This document shows, piece by piece, positions 262 to 5,127 of a stretch of 5,127 nt of DNA (its first letter is position 1; each line of letters opens with the position of its first letter). The notes beneath the pieces were generated by a model, which was given only the letters and a program-made list of their open reading frames with translations, did no database searches and was not told the DNA's origin. Both the position numbers and the translations under genes were made by a program. The stretch is taken from contig QMPN01000226.1 in NCBI GenBank assembly GCA_003648575.1, forward strand, positions 1 through 5,127. The letters run 5' to 3'. Origin of the DNA: Bacteroidota bacterium (lineage in GTDB: Bacteria > Bacteroidota > Bacteroidia > Bacteroidales > B18-G4).

Positions 262-2373
262 CTAAATATTAAAATAAATACTCATGTAAAACACCCTGCC
301 GGGTTCATACAAATTTCCTTTTCCGCCAATGATCCTCCTGTTGAGGTGTTCATAGTATGCTTTATCCAGGATATTGGAAACGCCGCCTGTAACTTTCAGG
401 TATGTATTGAACTTATAGGCAAAATTGAAGTTCAGCAGGACAAAGCCGGGCGATTCCTCTTCCATATAGGCAGCGGAGATATCATTTTGTGCTGCCACCA
501 TCCTTACATTGACATTCGGAACCAGGCGGCCGTCAAAGAACTTATAAAACACATCCACAGCACCTTCCAGTGGAGGGATCTCAGGCAAAGGATCGTTCTT
601 AACAGTTTCCTTTCCTGTCACCTCTCCATTCTCAATAATGTACTTTGTAGCTTCCGGGTTGACGCCCCATGTACAGGCAGCCCTCGCCCTGACACCCCAT
701 TTTTTTGATACAGGCGACTGATAAGTAAGCTCAAAGCCACGAAGGAATACATAATCTTCATTGTAGAATTGTTTCACCCCATAAACCCCTGTTGTTTGTG
801 GCTTTGCCACCGACTCGGGCAGTAGTTCGGCAGTGATATAATCAGTCACATAAGAGAAAAAGATGCCTCCTTCTATCGTACTGGCACCAGGGAAAGCCAG
901 CTTTGCCGACAGATCAACTTCGTTGTTGGCTTCCGGCTTCAACTGTGGGTTGCCGAGGTAGTCATAGTTATCGTAACCAATGGGGAGGAACATGATGTAG
1001 CGCTCGTTCATATCCGGGCTGCGGACACCGCGCCCCAGAGACAGATTAAGTGAAAACTTTTCACTGATGTAGTATTGGCCACCTACACTGGCGCTGATGT
1101 TAGTATAATCTGATTTAACCTCTGTATCCTCATACACCACGTTGCCCATTTTTACCAATTTCATCTCCCCTGAATTAGCCCTGTTATAGTCGATGCGGGC
1201 AGCGGCATCCATTACGAATTCCCCAAATGTCCTTCGATATAAGATAAACAATCCATTATTTTGTATCTGGGCATCATTCCAGAGCTTTTCCCTCATCACC
1301 GGCATTGTCGGCTCTAATATTTTGGTCTTTACACGATCGCCATCCTTTAGGATATGCTCATAATCTGTTCCAAAGACGAAAATATTTTCTCCGAAGCTGA
1401 AGCTGCCTTCCACGCGAAAACCGTAATTGCGGGCCTGTATATCAGAAACAGCAACTACGGTATCGGAGAACGGGCGCTGCTTATTATCCATCAGGTGGCT
1501 GACATCAGAAATATATACCTTGGCATTGAACTCATCAAAATTATTGCCGATACTTATCGCTTTATAGTCCAGGGACATAAGCCTTGTATCATCCTTGCGC
1601 TCGTCCATAGGCAAAGCCGGGAACATCACATCTCTCCCATATGACTGATCGAAAGAAATCATCACGTAATTATTCTTGAATGGGCTGACACCTAATTGTG
1701 CTGTGTAATTATACTTTTCAAATTCTGACCTGACCTCATTCCCATTGCCATCTTCATAATTTCCATATTTCTTTATGTTTCCCGACAGGGAGAAGTAAAC
1801 CTTATCATTTCCGCCATCTATCGACAAGCGGTTCTTGAAGCCGTTCCAGTTGCTCTCATAGCCCATCATCGCCCCCACATTGATTTTAAACTCCCTTTGA
1901 GGCAGGGGCCGAATGGTTTTCATATTTACCACCCCACCAAAGTTTGGCCCGTAGCGCAGTGCAAATGGCCCTTTTATCACTTCCAGTGCCCGAATATCAT
2001 CGATATCGATATGGGCTACCGCAGCATCCATACGGTTGGGGCATCCCCCCTCTATCTTTTGTCCGCCATTCAGCTGCACATTCAACTGGCTGTACTTAAA
2101 GCCCCTTATTACAGGATCCAGGGCGGTGCCGCCTTTGCGGATACCATTCACATTGGGAATGCTCCTCATCAGTCCTCCAATATCATGTGCAGGAAGGACA
2201 TCGATCTCCAGGCGATCAAGGCTGATCACAGGATAAGCCTGAGGAGGCCTCTGTGTATCGATGATCTCGAATGTCTCCAGCCTAACCAGTGTATCAGGTT
2301 CCTCCTGCTGAGCCTGAACATGCCTTGCGACGAGCAGTATGAATAAAAGTCCCAAATAAACCGGTGTTTTCAT
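262..2373 (-). CDS. TonB-dependent outer-membrane receptor, OprC/NosA-type (copper)
   Basis: A 703-residue TonB-dependent transporter, complete. It should move a metal ligand across the outer membrane using TonB-ExbB-ExbD energy. The order is signal peptide 1-21 (ends HVQA, then QQEE), a possible TonB box near 29-36 (LVRLETFE), a plug domain to about 155 with VIKGPFALRYGPNFGG (132-147), then a 22-stranded-type barrel. The barrel contains RSPDMNERY (451-459), GNPQLKPE (474-481) and a C-terminal strand FYMSIYFNI. CPNRM at 111-115 gives CxxxM and HLM at 293-295 gives HxM. In Pseudomonas OprC the copper ligands are Cys143/Met147 and His323/Met325. The spacing between the two Cys-to-His positions is nearly the same (182 here, 180 there). 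The only other Cys is C567. Upstream in-frame ATGs at 2430 and 2391 were rejected because 2373 gives a clean signal peptide and the candidate promoter box at 2394-2401 would place transcription initiation after 2391. Metal specificity is inferred. Confidence 0.9.
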   Translation of the reverse strand: MKTPVYLGLLFILLVARHVQAQQEEPDTLVRLETFEIIDTQRPPQAYPVISLDRLEIDVLPAHDIGGLMRSIPNVNGIRKGGTALDPVIRGFKYSQLNVQLNGGQKIEGGCPNRMDAAVAHIDIDDIRALEVIKGPFALRYGPNFGGVVNMKTIRPLPQREFKINVGAMMGYESNWNGFKNRLSIDGGNDKVYFSLSGNIKKYGNYEDGNGNEVRSEFEKYNYTAQLGVSPFKNNYVMISFDQSYGRDVMFPALPMDERKDDTRLMSLDYKAISIGNNFDEFNAKVYISDVSHLMDNKQRPFSDTVVAVSDIQARNYGFRVEGSFSFGENIFVFGTDYEHILKDGDRVKTKILEPTMPVMREKLWNDAQIQNNGLFILYRRTFGEFVMDAAARIDYNRANSGEMKLVKMGNVVYEDTEVKSDYTNISASVGGQYYISEKFSLNLSLGRGVRSPDMNERYIMFLPIGYDNYDYLGNPQLKPEANNEVDLSAKLAFPGASTIEGGIFFSYVTDYITAELLPESVAKPQTTGVYGVKQFYNEDYVFLRGFELTYQSPVSKKWGVRARAACTWGVNPEATKYIIENGEVTGKETVKNDPLPEIPPLEGAVDVFYKFFDGRLVPNVNVRMVAAQNDISAAYMEEESPGFVLLNFNFAYKFNTYLKVTGGVSNILDKAYYEHLNRRIIGGKGNLYEPGRVFYMSIYFNI

Positions 2374-2464: not shown

Positions 2465-2485
2465 GATTATGGATTATAGATTGTA
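2465..2485. repeat. Three copies of a GATTRTR heptamer
   Basis: Three consecutive 7-base units, GATTATG, GATTATA and GATTGTA, occupy 2465-2485. They differ in sequence from the AACCAGY array that begins a few bases later but share its period. A similar A/T-rich heptamer type returns at 3834-3847 (ATGATTA, GTGATTA). Confidence 0.65.
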
Positions 2486-2489
2486 AGCA

Positions 2490-2671
2490 ATACAGCCACC
2501 AGCAACCAGTAACCAGTAACCAGTAACCAGTAACCAGTAACCAGTAACCAGTAACCAGCAACCAGTAACCAGCAACCAGCAACCAGCAACCAGCAACCAG
2601 CAACCAGCAACCAGCAACCAGCAACCAGCAACCAGCAACCAGCAACCAGCAACCAGTAACCAGTAACTAAC
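2490..2671. repeat. AACCAGY heptamer tandem array, 23 exact units
   Basis: From 2504 to 2664 there are 23 uninterrupted 7-base units of AACCAGT or AACCAGC with no other change. The last base alternates in blocks: seven T units (2504-2552), one C, one T, twelve C units (2567-2650), then two T units. Degenerate units flank it: ATACAGC (2490), CACCAGC (2497) and AACTAAC (2665). Homogeneous blocks of one variant are what slipped-strand duplication would produce. The array ends 18 bases before the -7 box of the smr gene. Three units make 21 bases, so both strands read as 7-residue peptide repeats in every frame, which explains the spurious reading frames here. Confidence 0.97.
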
Positions 2672-2682
2672 ACCAAATGAAT

Positions 2683-2690
2683 TATCTTTG
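2683..2690 (+). promoter_or_regulatory. Bacteroidota -7 promoter box for the DUF2027-Smr gene
   Basis: TATCTTTG followed by CA matches TAnnTTTG exactly. With the last G at -7, transcription starts near 2697, downstream of the in-frame ATG at 2677 and about 7 bases before ATG at 2704. This argues that 2704 is the true start and that the mRNA is almost leaderless. No TTTG -33 element is visible at the usual distance; that position falls at the edge of the heptamer array. Confidence 0.55.
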
Positions 2691-2703
2691 CAAAAAGTGT
2701 AAT

Positions 2704-3765
2704 ATGAGATTCAAAGTTGGTGACAAGGTAAAATTTCTGAATGAGACGGGCGGCGGTATCGTCAGCAAGGTAGTAAGCAGCAGCCTCGTATATGTTGCAA
2801 CAGAGGATGGCTTCGAACTTCCGACAGCAACGGGCGACATTATAAAGATCGATCCGGAAAGCAAGGCAGAGAGGATGTTTTCAGAAGATTTCGATGTAGA
2901 TATAAGCAAAATTACTGAATCCCATGCAGCGGCTCCTTCATCTCTTCCGGCAGGCAAGATCAAGGCAGGTGCTATAGAAACACCCGGCTATTACCTGGCA
3001 TTTATCCCGGCCGACCAGCAATGGTTCATCACAGGCGATATAGAGGTTCGCATCATCAATCACTCAAAGAGCGACATCCTTTATAACGTCCTTTTGGAGG
3101 ATGAGGATCAGGATTACTTTGGCTTCGATTACGGCTCGGCGCAAGCCGGATCATCTGTTATAATAGATAATATCGACCGTGAAGCGCTGGCGGGCTGGAC
3201 TGACGGGATCGTACAGATACTGGTACATTCAGAGGGTGAAGCATTTCTTCCGCTCCACTGCAACTTCCATATCAAAGCCGGGAAGTTCAGCAGTGAAGGC
3301 AGCTACCAGGATTCCGGATTACTAAGAGAAAAAGCCATCATTTACAAGCTGGCTGATCTCAAGGCAAACAAGCTAATACCGGGAAAACGGCATGCTGTGA
3401 AAGTGGAAGAAGAGCCTGTTGAAGTAAAGGCCCGTGAACATAAGAAAGAAAGCCTGATAGGAAGGCATGCAGTGGGGCCCCATGCCGCGGTTGTTGACCT
3501 GCACATCGGCGAGATAGTTGATAATATCGCCGGTCTCAGCAGCCACGATATGTTTCTGCTGCAGATCAATTTCTTCAAAAAAACCCTCGACAGTGCTCTT
3601 GCCAACAACTTCCGCAAGGTAACCTACATCCATGGCGTCGGCAATGGTGTTCTGAAGAATGCCATCATTGAAAAACTCAGGGAGTACGAAGGACTTGAAA
3701 ATAAAAGCGCCAGCCTGGCGGAATATGGGCAGGGAGCGATTGATGTGTTGTTGTATTATAAGTAG
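2704..3765 (+). CDS. DUF2027 and Smr domain protein
   Basis: A 353-residue soluble protein with no signal peptide or membrane segment. The N-terminus (about 1-50, FKVGDKVKFLNETGGGIVSKV then VATEDGFELP) looks like a small KOW/SH3-type barrel. Residues about 90-195 form a beta-rich region typical of DUF2027, with the motif GYYLAF (95-100). A charged linker (about 205-260) leads to a C-terminal Smr domain with VDLHIGE (264-270) and HGVGNGVL (310-317), the latter being the classical HGxGxGxL signature. Smr domains of MutS2 and SmrB act on nucleic acids, including mRNA at stalled ribosomes; the role of this Bacteroidota family is not known to me. The first motif is DLHI rather than the canonical DLHG. 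Starting at ATG 2677 would add nine residues with a CKKC that is just translated promoter sequence, so 2704 is preferred. It is divergent from the receptor gene. Confidence 0.88.
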   Translation: MRFKVGDKVKFLNETGGGIVSKVVSSSLVYVATEDGFELPTATGDIIKIDPESKAERMFSEDFDVDISKITESHAAAPSSLPAGKIKAGAIETPGYYLAFIPADQQWFITGDIEVRIINHSKSDILYNVLLEDEDQDYFGFDYGSAQAGSSVIIDNIDREALAGWTDGIVQILVHSEGEAFLPLHCNFHIKAGKFSSEGSYQDSGLLREKAIIYKLADLKANKLIPGKRHAVKVEEEPVEVKAREHKKESLIGRHAVGPHAAVVDLHIGEIVDNIAGLSSHDMFLLQINFFKKTLDSALANNFRKVTYIHGVGNGVLKNAIIEKLREYEGLENKSASLAEYGQGAIDVLLYYK

Positions 3766-3820
3766 GGTGCAGGGGACAGGGGACAGGGGATGGGGGACAG
3801 GGTGCAAGGTGCAGGGTGAG
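3765..3820 (+). repeat. G-rich GGGGACA-type heptamer array
   Basis: Eight consecutive 7-base units begin on the last base of the smr stop codon. Unit starts are 3765 (GGGTGCA), 3772 and 3779 (GGGGACA), 3786 (GGGGATG), 3793 (GGGGACA), 3800 (GGGTGCA), 3807 (AGGTGCA) and 3814 (GGGTGAG). The period is strict while the unit drifts. The sequence is unrelated to the AACCAGY array on the other side of the gene. Confidence 0.85.
3772..3802 (+). other. Putative G-quadruplex motif after smr stop
   Basis: The plus strand has five G-runs: 3772-3775, 3779-3782, 3786-3789, 3792-3796 and 3800-3802. They are separated by loops of 3, 3, 2 and 3 bases. This far exceeds the usual G3N1-7 rule for a four-tetrad G-quadruplex. 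Being on the coding strand, it could form in the 3' UTR of the smr mRNA as well as in DNA. Whether it forms in the cell is inference. Confidence 0.7.
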
Positions 3821-3966
3821 TGATGAGATCCAAATGATTAGTGATTAATATTGAATGTTAATTGAGAGCAATGAGTTTAGATTTACGAGTTAATTAAGGA
3901 GGCTGCTAAGACTCAGACCTAAATCCAAAATCCTTAATTCATAATTACCCAACGCCTAAAGCCCAA
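3821..3966. repeat. Degenerate A/T-rich heptamer-periodic tract
   Basis: The 7-base phasing continues past the G-rich array with decayed units. Examples in one phase are ATGATTA (3834), GTGATTA (3841), ATATTGA (3848) and ATGTTAA (3855), then TTGAGAG (3862), TTTAGAT (3876) and TTACGAG (3883). A second family follows: CCTAAAT (3918), CCAAAAT (3925), CCTTAAT (3932) and TCATAAT (3939), then CGCCTAA (3953) and AGCCCAA (3960). Neighbouring units resemble each other more than distant ones do, as expected for old tandem duplications. The periodicity is seen by eye and the middle (about 3897-3910) is unclear. Confidence 0.55.
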
Positions 3967-3968
3967 TA

Positions 3969-3995
3969 GCCTGTCCTGAGCGAAGTCGAAGGGCC
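3969..3995. repeat. Short dispersed-repeat-like element with CCTGAGCGAAGTCGAAGG core
   Basis: The core at 3975-3992 is partly self-complementary: outer CCT pairs with AGG and inner CGA with TCG. I recognise this core, and variants of it, as a short sequence that recurs in intergenic DNA of many Bacteroidota and some other phyla. That recognition is from memory and no second copy exists in this window. Confidence 0.4.
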
Positions 3996-4011
3996 TTGCC
4001 CCATTTTTTTT
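3991..4011 (+). terminator. Weak terminator-like stem plus T8 run
   Basis: GGGC (3991-3994), loop CTT, GCCC (3998-4001), then CA and eight T bases (4004-4011). The four-pair G/C stem is short for an intrinsic terminator, but the T-run is good. It is the only such candidate after the smr gene. Its last T is also the first base of the next -7 box, so the T-run might belong to the promoter instead. Confidence 0.3.
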
Positions 4012-4018
4012 ATCTTTG
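4011..4018 (+). promoter_or_regulatory. Bacteroidota -7 promoter box for the DUF3078 gene
   Basis: TATCTTTG followed by CA is identical to the box before the smr gene. It predicts transcription from about 4025 and a leader of about 53 bases, rich in A and without a Shine-Dalgarno sequence, as is usual in this phylum. No -33 TTTG is seen at the standard distance; the T8 run lies directly upstream. Confidence 0.6.
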
Positions 4019-4077
4019 CAAACAGCACTTTTATCATCACAAAAACATCAACTTATTAAACCAATAAAATCAAAAAC

Positions 4078-5019
4078 ATGAAGAAACTATTTACTATTGC
4101 AGTTGTGCTATTATTTGCGACAAGCATTTTTGTAAATGCCCAGGAAGAGACTGAAGTACCTGAGGTACCTGAAAAACCATGGAAGATCGGCGGAGATGCA
4201 TCCCTTACTGTCGGGCAAACAGCCTTTGTAAACTGGTCAGCAGGTGGGGTGAGTTCATTCTCCCTGAATGGGTTATTGAACTTTCATGCCAATTACCAGG
4301 AAAACAAACTCCTCTGGACCAACAACCTGATAATGGCCTATGGGATGTATAAAGAGAAGGACGATGAGCGGTCTAAGAACGATGATAAGATCGACTTTAC
4401 ATCGAATTTCGGTTACGAAATGACCAAAAACTGGTACTATTCAATAACGGCCGGATTTAAGTCGCAGTTTGATAAAGGATTTCCCGAAAACCAGGACACC
4501 TTATATAACTCCAACTGGTTAGCTCCTGCATATTTCACGCTTGGACTTGGCCTTACATACAAACCCAATGACAATATTCAGCTGATCCTTGCTCCCGCCA
4601 CCTACAGGCTCACGATCGTGAACAACCAGCGGCTGGCTGATGCAGGGGAATATGGATTAGACGGTGCAGAGTATATCAACGATACAGTACTTACAAAGCA
4701 TGGCAGTAAATTCAGGCATGAATTCGGTTTCAACCTCAAGTTCATGTATTCAGTGACCATCGTGAAGAATGTAGATTTCCAGACCAACCTTGAGCTATTC
4801 TCCAACTACCTTGAGAATCCGCAGAATATTGATGTATACTGGGACAACTACTTCACTTTCACCATTAATAGCTGGCTTGCAGCAACCCTTACCACCAGCC
4901 TGATCTACGATGATGATATCAACATCACCGACAAAGACGGCAACAGCGGCCCAAAGACTCAGTTCAAGCAAACTTTCGGACTCGGACTGGCATATAAGCT
5001 GGGGCATCAGAACGAATAG
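4078..5019 (+). CDS. DUF3078 outer-membrane beta-barrel protein
   Basis: A complete 313-residue protein. A Sec signal peptide (1-21, MKKLFTIAVV onward, ending VNA before QEET) exports it. The mature chain opens with an acidic Pro/Glu segment (22-34). Then come family hallmarks I recognise from DUF3078 proteins of Bacteroidota: WKIGGDASLTVGQ (35-47), FVNWSAGG (50-57), NWYYSITAGFKSQF (118-131), LAPAYFTLGLGLTYKP (148-163), LAPATYRLT (171-179), KNVDFQTNLELFSNYLENP (230-248) and LIYDDDI (275-281). Alternating hydrophobic strands fit an outer-membrane beta-barrel. Its substrate is not known. ATG at 4078 is the only start that gives a signal peptide. It has its own promoter box and appears monocistronic in this window. 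Confidence 0.9.
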   Translation: MKKLFTIAVVLLFATSIFVNAQEETEVPEVPEKPWKIGGDASLTVGQTAFVNWSAGGVSSFSLNGLLNFHANYQENKLLWTNNLIMAYGMYKEKDDERSKNDDKIDFTSNFGYEMTKNWYYSITAGFKSQFDKGFPENQDTLYNSNWLAPAYFTLGLGLTYKPNDNIQLILAPATYRLTIVNNQRLADAGEYGLDGAEYINDTVLTKHGSKFRHEFGFNLKFMYSVTIVKNVDFQTNLELFSNYLENPQNIDVYWDNYFTFTINSWLAATLTTSLIYDDDINITDKDGNSGPKTQFKQTFGLGLAYKLGHQNE

Positions 5020-5020
5020 A

Positions 5021-5062
5021 ATACAGAATATACAATATACAGTATACAATATACAGTATTCA
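5021..5062. repeat. RTATACA heptamer array behind the DUF3078 stop
   Basis: Six 7-base units begin two bases after the stop codon: ATACAGA, ATATACA, ATATACA, GTATACA, ATATACA and GTATTCA. The array is A/T-rich and contains the palindrome GTATAC (5042-5047). No intrinsic terminator is visible between it and the right edge. Confidence 0.85.
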
Positions 5063-5071
5063 AATTGGAGC

Positions 5072-5100
5072 TAATTGCGTTCATACTGCGCAAAGCAATC
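5072..5100. repeat. Imperfect palindromic element, ATTGCG and CGCAA arms
   Basis: TTGCG (5075-5079) faces CGCAA (5089-5093) across a 9-base loop, and GCAAT (5095-5099) can alternatively pair with ATTGC (5074-5078). On the minus strand it reads GATTGC then CGCAAT at the far end, which recalls GATTGCTTCG-type intergenic repeats known from many genomes. The resemblance is loose, and the short stem could be chance. Confidence 0.22.
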
Positions 5101-5113
5101 AGTGTGGCTTTTC

Positions 5114-5127
5114 TATTGTATATTGAA
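5114..5127. repeat. Inverted copy of the RTATACA heptamer type, cut by window end
   Basis: TATTGTATATT at 5114-5124 is the exact reverse complement of AATATACAATA at 5027-5037 inside the preceding array. The window ends three bases later, so it may be the start of a further heptamer array in the opposite orientation, or one arm of a long inverted repeat of about 100 bases. Confidence 0.4.

What the first reader, a model, noticed from the sequence alone, without database searches (positions are those of the whole stretch)
2465..5127. Heptamer-periodic intergenic DNA with a different 7-base unit at each site
At least five separate non-coding stretches share a 7-base period while their units differ: GATTRTR (2465-2485), AACCAGY (2490-2671), GGGGACA-type (3765-3820), ATGATTA and CCTAAAT types (3834-3966), and RTATACA (5021-5062). 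A common unit length without a common sequence suggests a mechanism that fixes the length (for example a polymerase or repair step that slips by 7) rather than a spreading element. Cyanobacterial STRR heptamers are the nearest known parallel; I know of no established description in Bacteroidota.
Basis: partly seen in the sequence, partly recalled or inferred. Interest (0 to 1): 0.72.

Follow-up and report, generated by a model that had tools for sequence, protein, structure and literature searches.

The report
Heptamer repeat arrays between Bacteroidales genes
The DNA between genes in this bacterium is rich in short tandem repeats whose unit is nearly always 7 (sometimes 8) letters long, a known but unexplained bacterial pattern whose repeated words, in close relatives, also recur at many sites and change from species to species.

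Summary
Period 7 is real in the three gaps examined, though two of the named units are weak or degenerate. No genome is held for the window, so the genome-wide test was run on relatives, and it passes: in G001, the nearest relative, 22.8 kb of gaps hold 26 blocks of period 7, 10 of period 8 and none of 5, 6 or 9; relative G007 (32.6 kb) and E. coli (12.8 kb) hold 1 and 0 of period 7. Isolated two-copy duplications also peak at 7 (46 against 2.6 in shuffles).

'Common length without common sequence, not spreading' fails in the relatives. Units recur between gaps far above chance. CTGGATA x3 has 523 matches in G001 and 12 in its roughly 90% identical relative G002. Gaps share array-plus-unique segments. 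Aligned gaps of the two genomes hold different units.

Best reading: duplication with a 7-8 nt step, plus copying between gaps, under weak constraint. Heptamer excess, its polymerase explanation and Bacteroidetes examples are in print (PMC4692102, PMC4679880). Not found described: an inward G-strand polarity of arrays, firm only in G001.

The parts
2465..2485 (+). Three GATTRTR units; weak period 7
   Evidence: TRF 2464-2482, score 31; stretch 2431-2489 lag-7 z 1.4, 38 of 400 shuffles
2493..2667 (+). AACCAGY array, 23 exact successive units at 2504-2664, T and C variants in blocks
   Evidence: TRF 25 copies, 96%; recount; unit order
3765..3827 (+). GGGGACA/GGGTGCA heptamers that change step by step in one phase; exact part 3770-3802
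   Evidence: TRF 3770-3802, score 52; reading in sevens
3821..4077 (.).
   Evidence: lag-7 0.38, z 3.6, 0 of 400 shuffles
5016..5063 (+). RTATACA array, also a 14-base unit TATACAATATACAG (5029-5063)
   Evidence: TRF; lag-7 0.52, z 5.8 in 5020-5127
262..2364 (-). Flanking gene: TonB-dependent receptor (Plug and beta-barrel)
   Evidence: Pfam PF07715, PF00593
2677..3765 (+). Flanking gene: DUF2027-Smr protein; the true start may be the ATG at 2704, as in L001
   Evidence: Pfam PF09640, PF01713; start compared by eye
4078..5019 (+). Flanking gene: DUF3078 protein
   Evidence: Pfam PF11276

Best explanation
The gaps are weakly constrained DNA that is continually rebuilt by two processes. (1) Locally, a replication or repair slip copies the last 7 (less often 8) bases again; repeated slips make an array, mutations make the unit drift along it, and further slips homogenise it. 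(2) Arrays, with bits of neighbouring sequence, are copied between gaps, probably by recombination or template switching at the short homology that arrays offer, so one unit can become a genome's favourite (CTGGATA in G001). Arrays decay, so related species hold different units at the same place. Genes are largely spared because a 7-base step breaks the reading frame. SHOWN in relatives: length specificity, recurrence of units, shared composite segments, different units in aligned gaps, near absence from coding DNA. SHOWN in the window: period 7 in the gaps. INFERRED: slippage as the elementary step, recombination or template switching as carrier, weak constraint, an enzyme footprint as the cause of 7-8, and that the window's genome behaves like its relatives.
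For: Sharp peak at 7 with 8 second, in arrays, with a copy-number threshold and in isolated two-copy duplications: 7-base 46 vs 2.6 shuffled in G001, 21 vs 2.7 in G002, 30 vs 3.6 in G009. Outside exact arrays the lag-7 excess falls with distance in G001 (lags 7, 14, 21, 28: 39, 18, 11, -2 per thousand), as local copying predicts. Same-unit gap pairs far above shuffled units in three genomes. Array-plus-unique segments shared by 9, 7 and 18 gap pairs in G001, G002, G009 and 0 in G007. Ten aligned G001/G002 stretches with an array in either genome: three have arrays in both, none with the same unit. Coding DNA: 2 period-7 blocks in 145 kb of G001 against 26 in 22.8 kb of gaps.
Against: No enzyme was found that tracks the pattern. 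Simple slippage does not predict the inward G-strand polarity of arrays seen in G001. The direction of change (gain in G001 or loss in G002) is not polarised by an outgroup. Shared composite segments could in part be old duplications. Two-copy duplications may be remnants of decayed arrays rather than births, and 6-base ones are slightly raised in G001 (17 vs 10.3). The window's own genome was not available.
Confidence: 0.6

Rival explanations
1. One reading: a polymerase or repair step of 7 acts independently at each site, with no spread of units.
For: Length peak at 7; many distinct units, 34 among 48 records in G001; GGGGACA not found in 14 relatives.
Against: Recurrence of units, 523 against 12 matches of CTGGATA x3 in two close genomes, shared array-plus-unique segments, and a steady minority of period 8. 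A sequence preference of the slipping enzyme could explain recurrence but not the shared unique parts.
Confidence: 0.2
2. [quoted passage not shown]
For: MacGregor 2015 proposed a translational role for TAACTGA (PMC4679880, passages) and Rehm 2015 studied G-quadruplex forming heptamers (PMC4692102, passages). The window's array ends close to the likely start of the Smr gene.
Against: Units differ between aligned gaps of close relatives and many units coexist in a genome. The window's AACCAGY and RTATACA and G001's CTGGATA have no run of three G, so a quadruplex role cannot be general (the GGGGACA array at 3770-3802 could form one). Expression was not tested.
Confidence: 0.1
3. A reverse transcriptase of the telomerase-like kind writes the repeats from an RNA template and they enter the chromosome.
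For: DRT10 makes short tandem-repeat DNA with words and lengths that vary by system (PMC12632851, abstract and sections 7 and 8 read); G-rich strands run inward in G001 gaps.
Against: G001, the richest genome, has no PF00078 match in its draft assembly; matches in 2 of 7 genomes, G002 and G009. The number of different units per genome would need many templates. Insertion of such DNA into chromosomes is not described in the sections read.
Confidence: 0.04
4. Chance, low-complexity composition or assembly artefact.
For: Most genomes searched are fragmented drafts.
Against: Shuffles give almost no such blocks; AACCAGY arrays lie inside long contigs, e.g. G167 C16 (364 kb) and G181 C3 (873 kb); degenerate DNA carries the same period.
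Confidence: 0.02

Closest known systems
Heptanucleotide long simple sequence repeats of prokaryotes (Mrazek et al. 2007, seen only as reported in PMC4692102 and PMC4679880, passages)
   Same: Excess of 7-base units, mostly in intergenic DNA, with a proposed polymerase-contact cause; published as the most abundant long class in most genomes examined.
   Different: Here a minority of period 8, two-copy duplications with the same peak, shared composites between gaps and turnover between close relatives were measured. A later survey (PMC4060949, passages) found repeats of long units mostly normally represented across phyla, so the strength here is lineage-specific.
TAACTGA intergenic direct repeats of Beggiatoaceae, Cyanobacteria and five Bacteroidetes (PMC4679880; passages and section 12)
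   Same: Intergenic heptamer arrays in Bacteroidetes, some gaps with several heptamers, close relatives with shorter gaps without obvious repeats.
   Different: One unit of interest there; here many units and other words (AACCAGY, CTGGATA).
GGGAATC-type repeats of Xanthomonas and GGGGA(C/T)T of Nostoc (PMC4692102; passages)
   Same: A favoured heptamer at many intergenic sites of one genome, with length and sequence variation between close relatives.
   Different: Those are G-quadruplex candidates; the main units here have no run of three G.
Cyanobacterial STRR heptamers
   Same: Several tandem heptamers in one genome (Calothrix, as mentioned in PMC4692102).
   Different: Not compared by sequence here.
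Dispersed element of four GGGACCG heptamers at 49 places in Geobacter metallireducens (PMC2700814, passages)
   Same: A heptamer array found at many places of one genome.
   Different: A fixed element of four units, also inside genes; here array length and unit vary and coding DNA is largely spared.

Membership tests
Heptanucleotide long simple sequence repeats of bacteria | Tandem 7-base units longer than chance allows | tested here: met
   TRF 2493-2667 and others; shuffles
Heptanucleotide long simple sequence repeats of bacteria | Period 7 commoner than neighbouring periods over the genome | tested here: inconclusive
   Met in three relatives, G001, G002, G009; the source genome is not held; not met in samples of G003, G007, G008
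Heptanucleotide long simple sequence repeats of bacteria | Intergenic rather than coding | tested here: met
   Window arrays lie between ORFs; G001 26 blocks in 22.8 kb of gaps, 2 in 145 kb coding
TAACTGA direct repeats | Unit TAACTGA | tested here: not met
   Window units are AACCAGY, GGGGACA and RTATACA types
Xanthomonas/Nostoc G-quadruplex heptamers | Unit GGGNATC or GGGGAYT | tested here: not met
   No such unit in the TRF list; GGGGACA at 3770-3802 is similar but not the same
Cyanobacterial STRR | Defined STRR consensus heptamers | not tested
   No sequence comparison was run
DRT10 / telomerase-like repeat synthesis | A reverse transcriptase in the genome | tested here: not met
   No PF00078 match in G001 (draft assembly); 2 of 7 genomes have one
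DRT10 / telomerase-like repeat synthesis | Noncoding RNA with an A-B-A' template | not tested
   No candidate was looked for

The most novel reading that the evidence does not exclude
Gaps in this lineage grow directionally: a process with a 7-8 base step adds repeats so that the G-rich strand runs 5' to 3' away from each flanking gene, giving two inward-facing runs that meet in the middle, as if two DNA ends had each been extended and then joined; the unit words spread between such sites and form species-specific dialects.
Probability: 0.08. Interest if true: 0.85.

Novelty: new variant of a known kind. Interest (0 to 1): 0.45.

Why it matters
Why bacteria favour tandem repeats of seven is unexplained. 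The peak seen here (7, then 8, with little or nothing at 5, 6 and 9, also for isolated two-copy duplications) suggests that the length is set when a repeat is born. Relatives with and without the pattern make a comparison of genes or of mutation spectra possible. Spread of units between gaps, and their replacement between related species, also matter when gaps are read as regulatory DNA.

Tried and rejected

Y-family polymerase (PF00817) as cause: over the cut-off in 6 of 7 genomes that I class as array-rich (G001, G002, G009, G006, G167, G154; G224 has only a weak fragment) and in 1 of 3 array-poor (G008; not G003, G007). Over the order, 16 of 21 genomes with AACCAGY x4 have a match against 226 of 274 without (the 295 genomes taken to be the same draw, genomes not printed as matches counted as lacking one). 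No association; rejected.

Mismatch repair loss: MutS_I in 9 of 10 genomes, missing only in G002. No association.

Reverse transcriptase: 2 of 7 genomes, not in G001. Not supported.

Polarity as a general rule. For: G001 array blocks G-rich/C-rich in the left half 19/3 and in the right half 2/9 (first sample, p 2.5e-4); 21/8 and 6/20 (sample chosen for CTGGATA, p 3.9e-4); units outside the CTGGAT/CTGGTT family 16/2 and 2/8, 13/4 and 2/14, whereas that family itself shows none (3/1 and 0/1; 8/4 and 4/6). CTGGATA arrays lie nearer their 5' side gene in 18 of 24 gaps. Against: G002 7/1 and 4/6 (p 0.066); G009 11/6 and 2/7 (p 0.097, rho -0.45, p 0.009); G167/G224/G154 5/4 and 1/1; AACCAGY arrays in 18 gaps 10 against 7 with one tie; gap-wise count G002 12 of 24, G009 19 of 31. 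In the sample chosen for CTGGATA the non-array DNA is also skewed (51 of 73), though not in the first sample (24 of 42), G007 (53 of 113) or E. coli (21 of 42). Kept only as a lead.

Rfam found nothing at gathering scores; promoter/terminator scans were near or below shuffles. Literature searches for heptamers; only 20 of 94 and 15 of 114 papers were listed.

Limits: genes were called as ORFs of 100 or more codons, so small genes count as gap. Sampled contigs were the first by number (cut at 20 kb), plus the Smr loci L001, L002, L003, L028; samples of G003, G006 and G008 are small. E. coli control is two 50-kb stretches.
Full report
OBSERVATION. Three gaps of the window were tested, the last cut by the window end; all three show period 7 beyond 400 dinucleotide shuffles. 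The strongest array is AACCAGY, 2493-2667, with 23 exact successive units at 2504-2664 and its two variants in blocks. GGGGACA (3770-3802) and RTATACA (5016-5063) are real. GATTRTR is three units and not above chance by itself; the ATGATTA and CCTAAAT stretches are degenerate period-7 DNA, not arrays. Read in sevens from 3765 the units change step by step (GGGTGCA, GGGGACA, GGGGACA, GGGGATG, GGGGACA, GGGTGCA, AGGTGCA, GGGTGAG, TGATGAG), so some 'different units' may be stages of one series.

SETTING. The neighbours are a TonB-dependent receptor, a DUF2027-Smr protein and a DUF3078 protein. No whole genome is held for the window. A scan of genome contigs with the Smr protein gave three relatives: L001 and L002, MAGs titled Bacteroidales bacterium and Bacteroidetes bacterium (72% identity), and L003 (45%). 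They lie in genomes G001, G002 and G003. G001 and G002 are about 90% identical to each other in most aligned blocks. The order Smr-DUF3078 is kept in L001 and L002, but the gaps hold other repeats: CTGGATA and TTCGTTA before the Smr gene in L001, GAGACTTT-type 8-mers and CAACACC after it, AGTGCCT after it in L002.

IS 7 ENRICHED? I counted exact runs of at least 12 matches, a threshold equal for every period, merging runs of one period. G001 (22.8 kb of gaps): 26 of period 7, 10 of 8, none of 3-6 or 9-11. G002 (22.7 kb): 12 and 4, with one each of 5 and 9. G009 (33.0 kb): 21 and 7, none of 5, 6, 9. G006 (3.7 kb): 2 of period 7. G003 (4.7 kb): none of 7, one of 9. G008 (3.2 kb): none. G007 (32.6 kb): 1 and 3. 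Loci of 28 other relatives (20.5 kb): 3 and 3. E. coli (12.8 kb): none. A threshold in copies gives the same peak: G001 26 of period 7, 7 of 8, 1 of 5, 0 of 6 and 9. Isolated two-copy duplications peak at 7 in G001, G002 and G009 (46, 21, 30 against 2.6, 2.7, 3.6 shuffled); G007 has 6 against 2.3 and E. coli 1 against 1.2; 6-base ones are slightly raised in G001 (17 against 10.3).

DO UNITS SPREAD? Same-unit pairs of gaps exceed units with shuffled letters in the three array-rich genomes: 32 against 1.6, 8 against 0.37, 18 against 0.88; yet 34 of the 48 G001 records are distinct units. Over whole genomes, CTGGATA x3 with up to 2 mismatches has 523 matches (overlapping ones counted) in G001, 12 in G002, 27 in G003 and 0 in G006, G007 and G009; the reversed control has 0 in all six; the G001 matches that were printed (a truncated list) lie on 31 contigs. 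The window's AACCAGY x4 is in 21 of 295 genomes of the order, the reversed control in 7 of 295, so even an arbitrary heptamer is now and then a genome's word. RTATACA x3 is in 2 of 14 genomes (control in 1), GGGGACA x3 in 0 of 14. Pairs of gaps also share segments that join an array to at least 14 bases of unique sequence: 9 pairs among 73 gaps in G001, 7 among 78 in G002, 18 among 126 in G009, 0 among 155 in G007; examples.

TURNOVER. In five pairs of overlapping G001/G002 contigs, ten aligned stretches hold an array (exact run of 9, period up to 9) in either genome; three have arrays in both and none of these share a unit (one of the ten spans 2.9 kb with a gene, one has only a 6-base unit). 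One gap has GAAGAGGR 8-mers in G001 and CGATTGAR 8-mers followed by GAAGAGG copies in G002; another has CTGGATA x12 against CCGGATA/CCGGGTG. One more site keeps related short CTGGATG copies in both genomes (L001 7058, L002 3156).

POLARITY. In G001, array blocks in the left half of a gap are mostly G-rich on the top strand and those in the right half C-rich, in two separate samples, and this is carried by units outside the CTGGAT/CTGGTT family. In G002 and G009 the direction is the same by blocks but not significant by Fisher test; other tests there, and AACCAGY arrays of other genomes, show little or nothing (all counts in Tried and rejected). The pattern equals 'C-rich on the sense strand upstream of genes, G-rich downstream', so selection on transcripts could also make it.

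MECHANISM. Birth by a 7-8 base slip, drift and homogenisation along the array, copying between gaps through short homology, and decay fit best (0.6). The cause of 7-8 was not found: Y-family polymerase, MutS and reverse transcriptase do not track the pattern. The telomerase-like DRT10 (PMC12632851; abstract and sections 7 and 8 read) is the nearest enzyme known to me that writes short repeats with variable words, but G001's draft has no reverse transcriptase match.

KNOWN OR NEW. Heptamer excess, intergenic position and the polymerase-contact idea are in print (PMC4692102 and PMC4679880, passages), and heptamer arrays in Bacteroidetes too (PMC4679880 section 12). A heptamer element at 49 places is described for Geobacter (PMC2700814, passages). 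A survey of 2014 found repeats of long units mostly normal over phyla (PMC4060949, passages). In some searches I saw no description of the two-copy spectrum, of shared array-plus-unique segments or of the polarity; the 2007 paper was not available and most subscription papers are not held.

Noticed in passing
window 3970-3993: A stretch CCTGTCCTGAGCGAAGTCGAAGGG; a similar one (CCCTTCGACAAGCTCAGGACAGG) precedes a CTGGATA array in L163. From memory this kind of short dispersed repeat is widespread; no search was run.
   Followed up: no
G001 loci L008, L015, L024, L146, L150, L154, L161: A dispersed short element with GCTTTAGCGTAGGTG, in several gaps placed directly before a CTGGATA array.
   Followed up: partly
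G001 and G002 gaps, e.g. L010 5603-5793 and L093: Period-8 arrays (GAAGAGGR, CGATTGAR, GAGACTTT, AACAGATT types) are a steady companion of period 7.
   Followed up: partly
L003 11083-11118 and 11411-11455: G003's gaps show 9- and 8-base repeats rather than 7; its sampled contigs have no period-7 block, although CTGGATA matches occur elsewhere in the genome.
   Followed up: no
G241 and G253: The backward-read AACCAGY control pattern matches 36 and 22 times in these two genomes, so they carry arrays of another word.
   Followed up: no
window 3770-3802: The GGGGACA array has several G-tracts close together and could form a G-quadruplex; the other window units have none.
   Followed up: no
window 2677-3765: DUF2027-Smr gene; the Smr domain is also known from MutS2 (recalled). 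No link to the repeats was tested.
   Followed up: no
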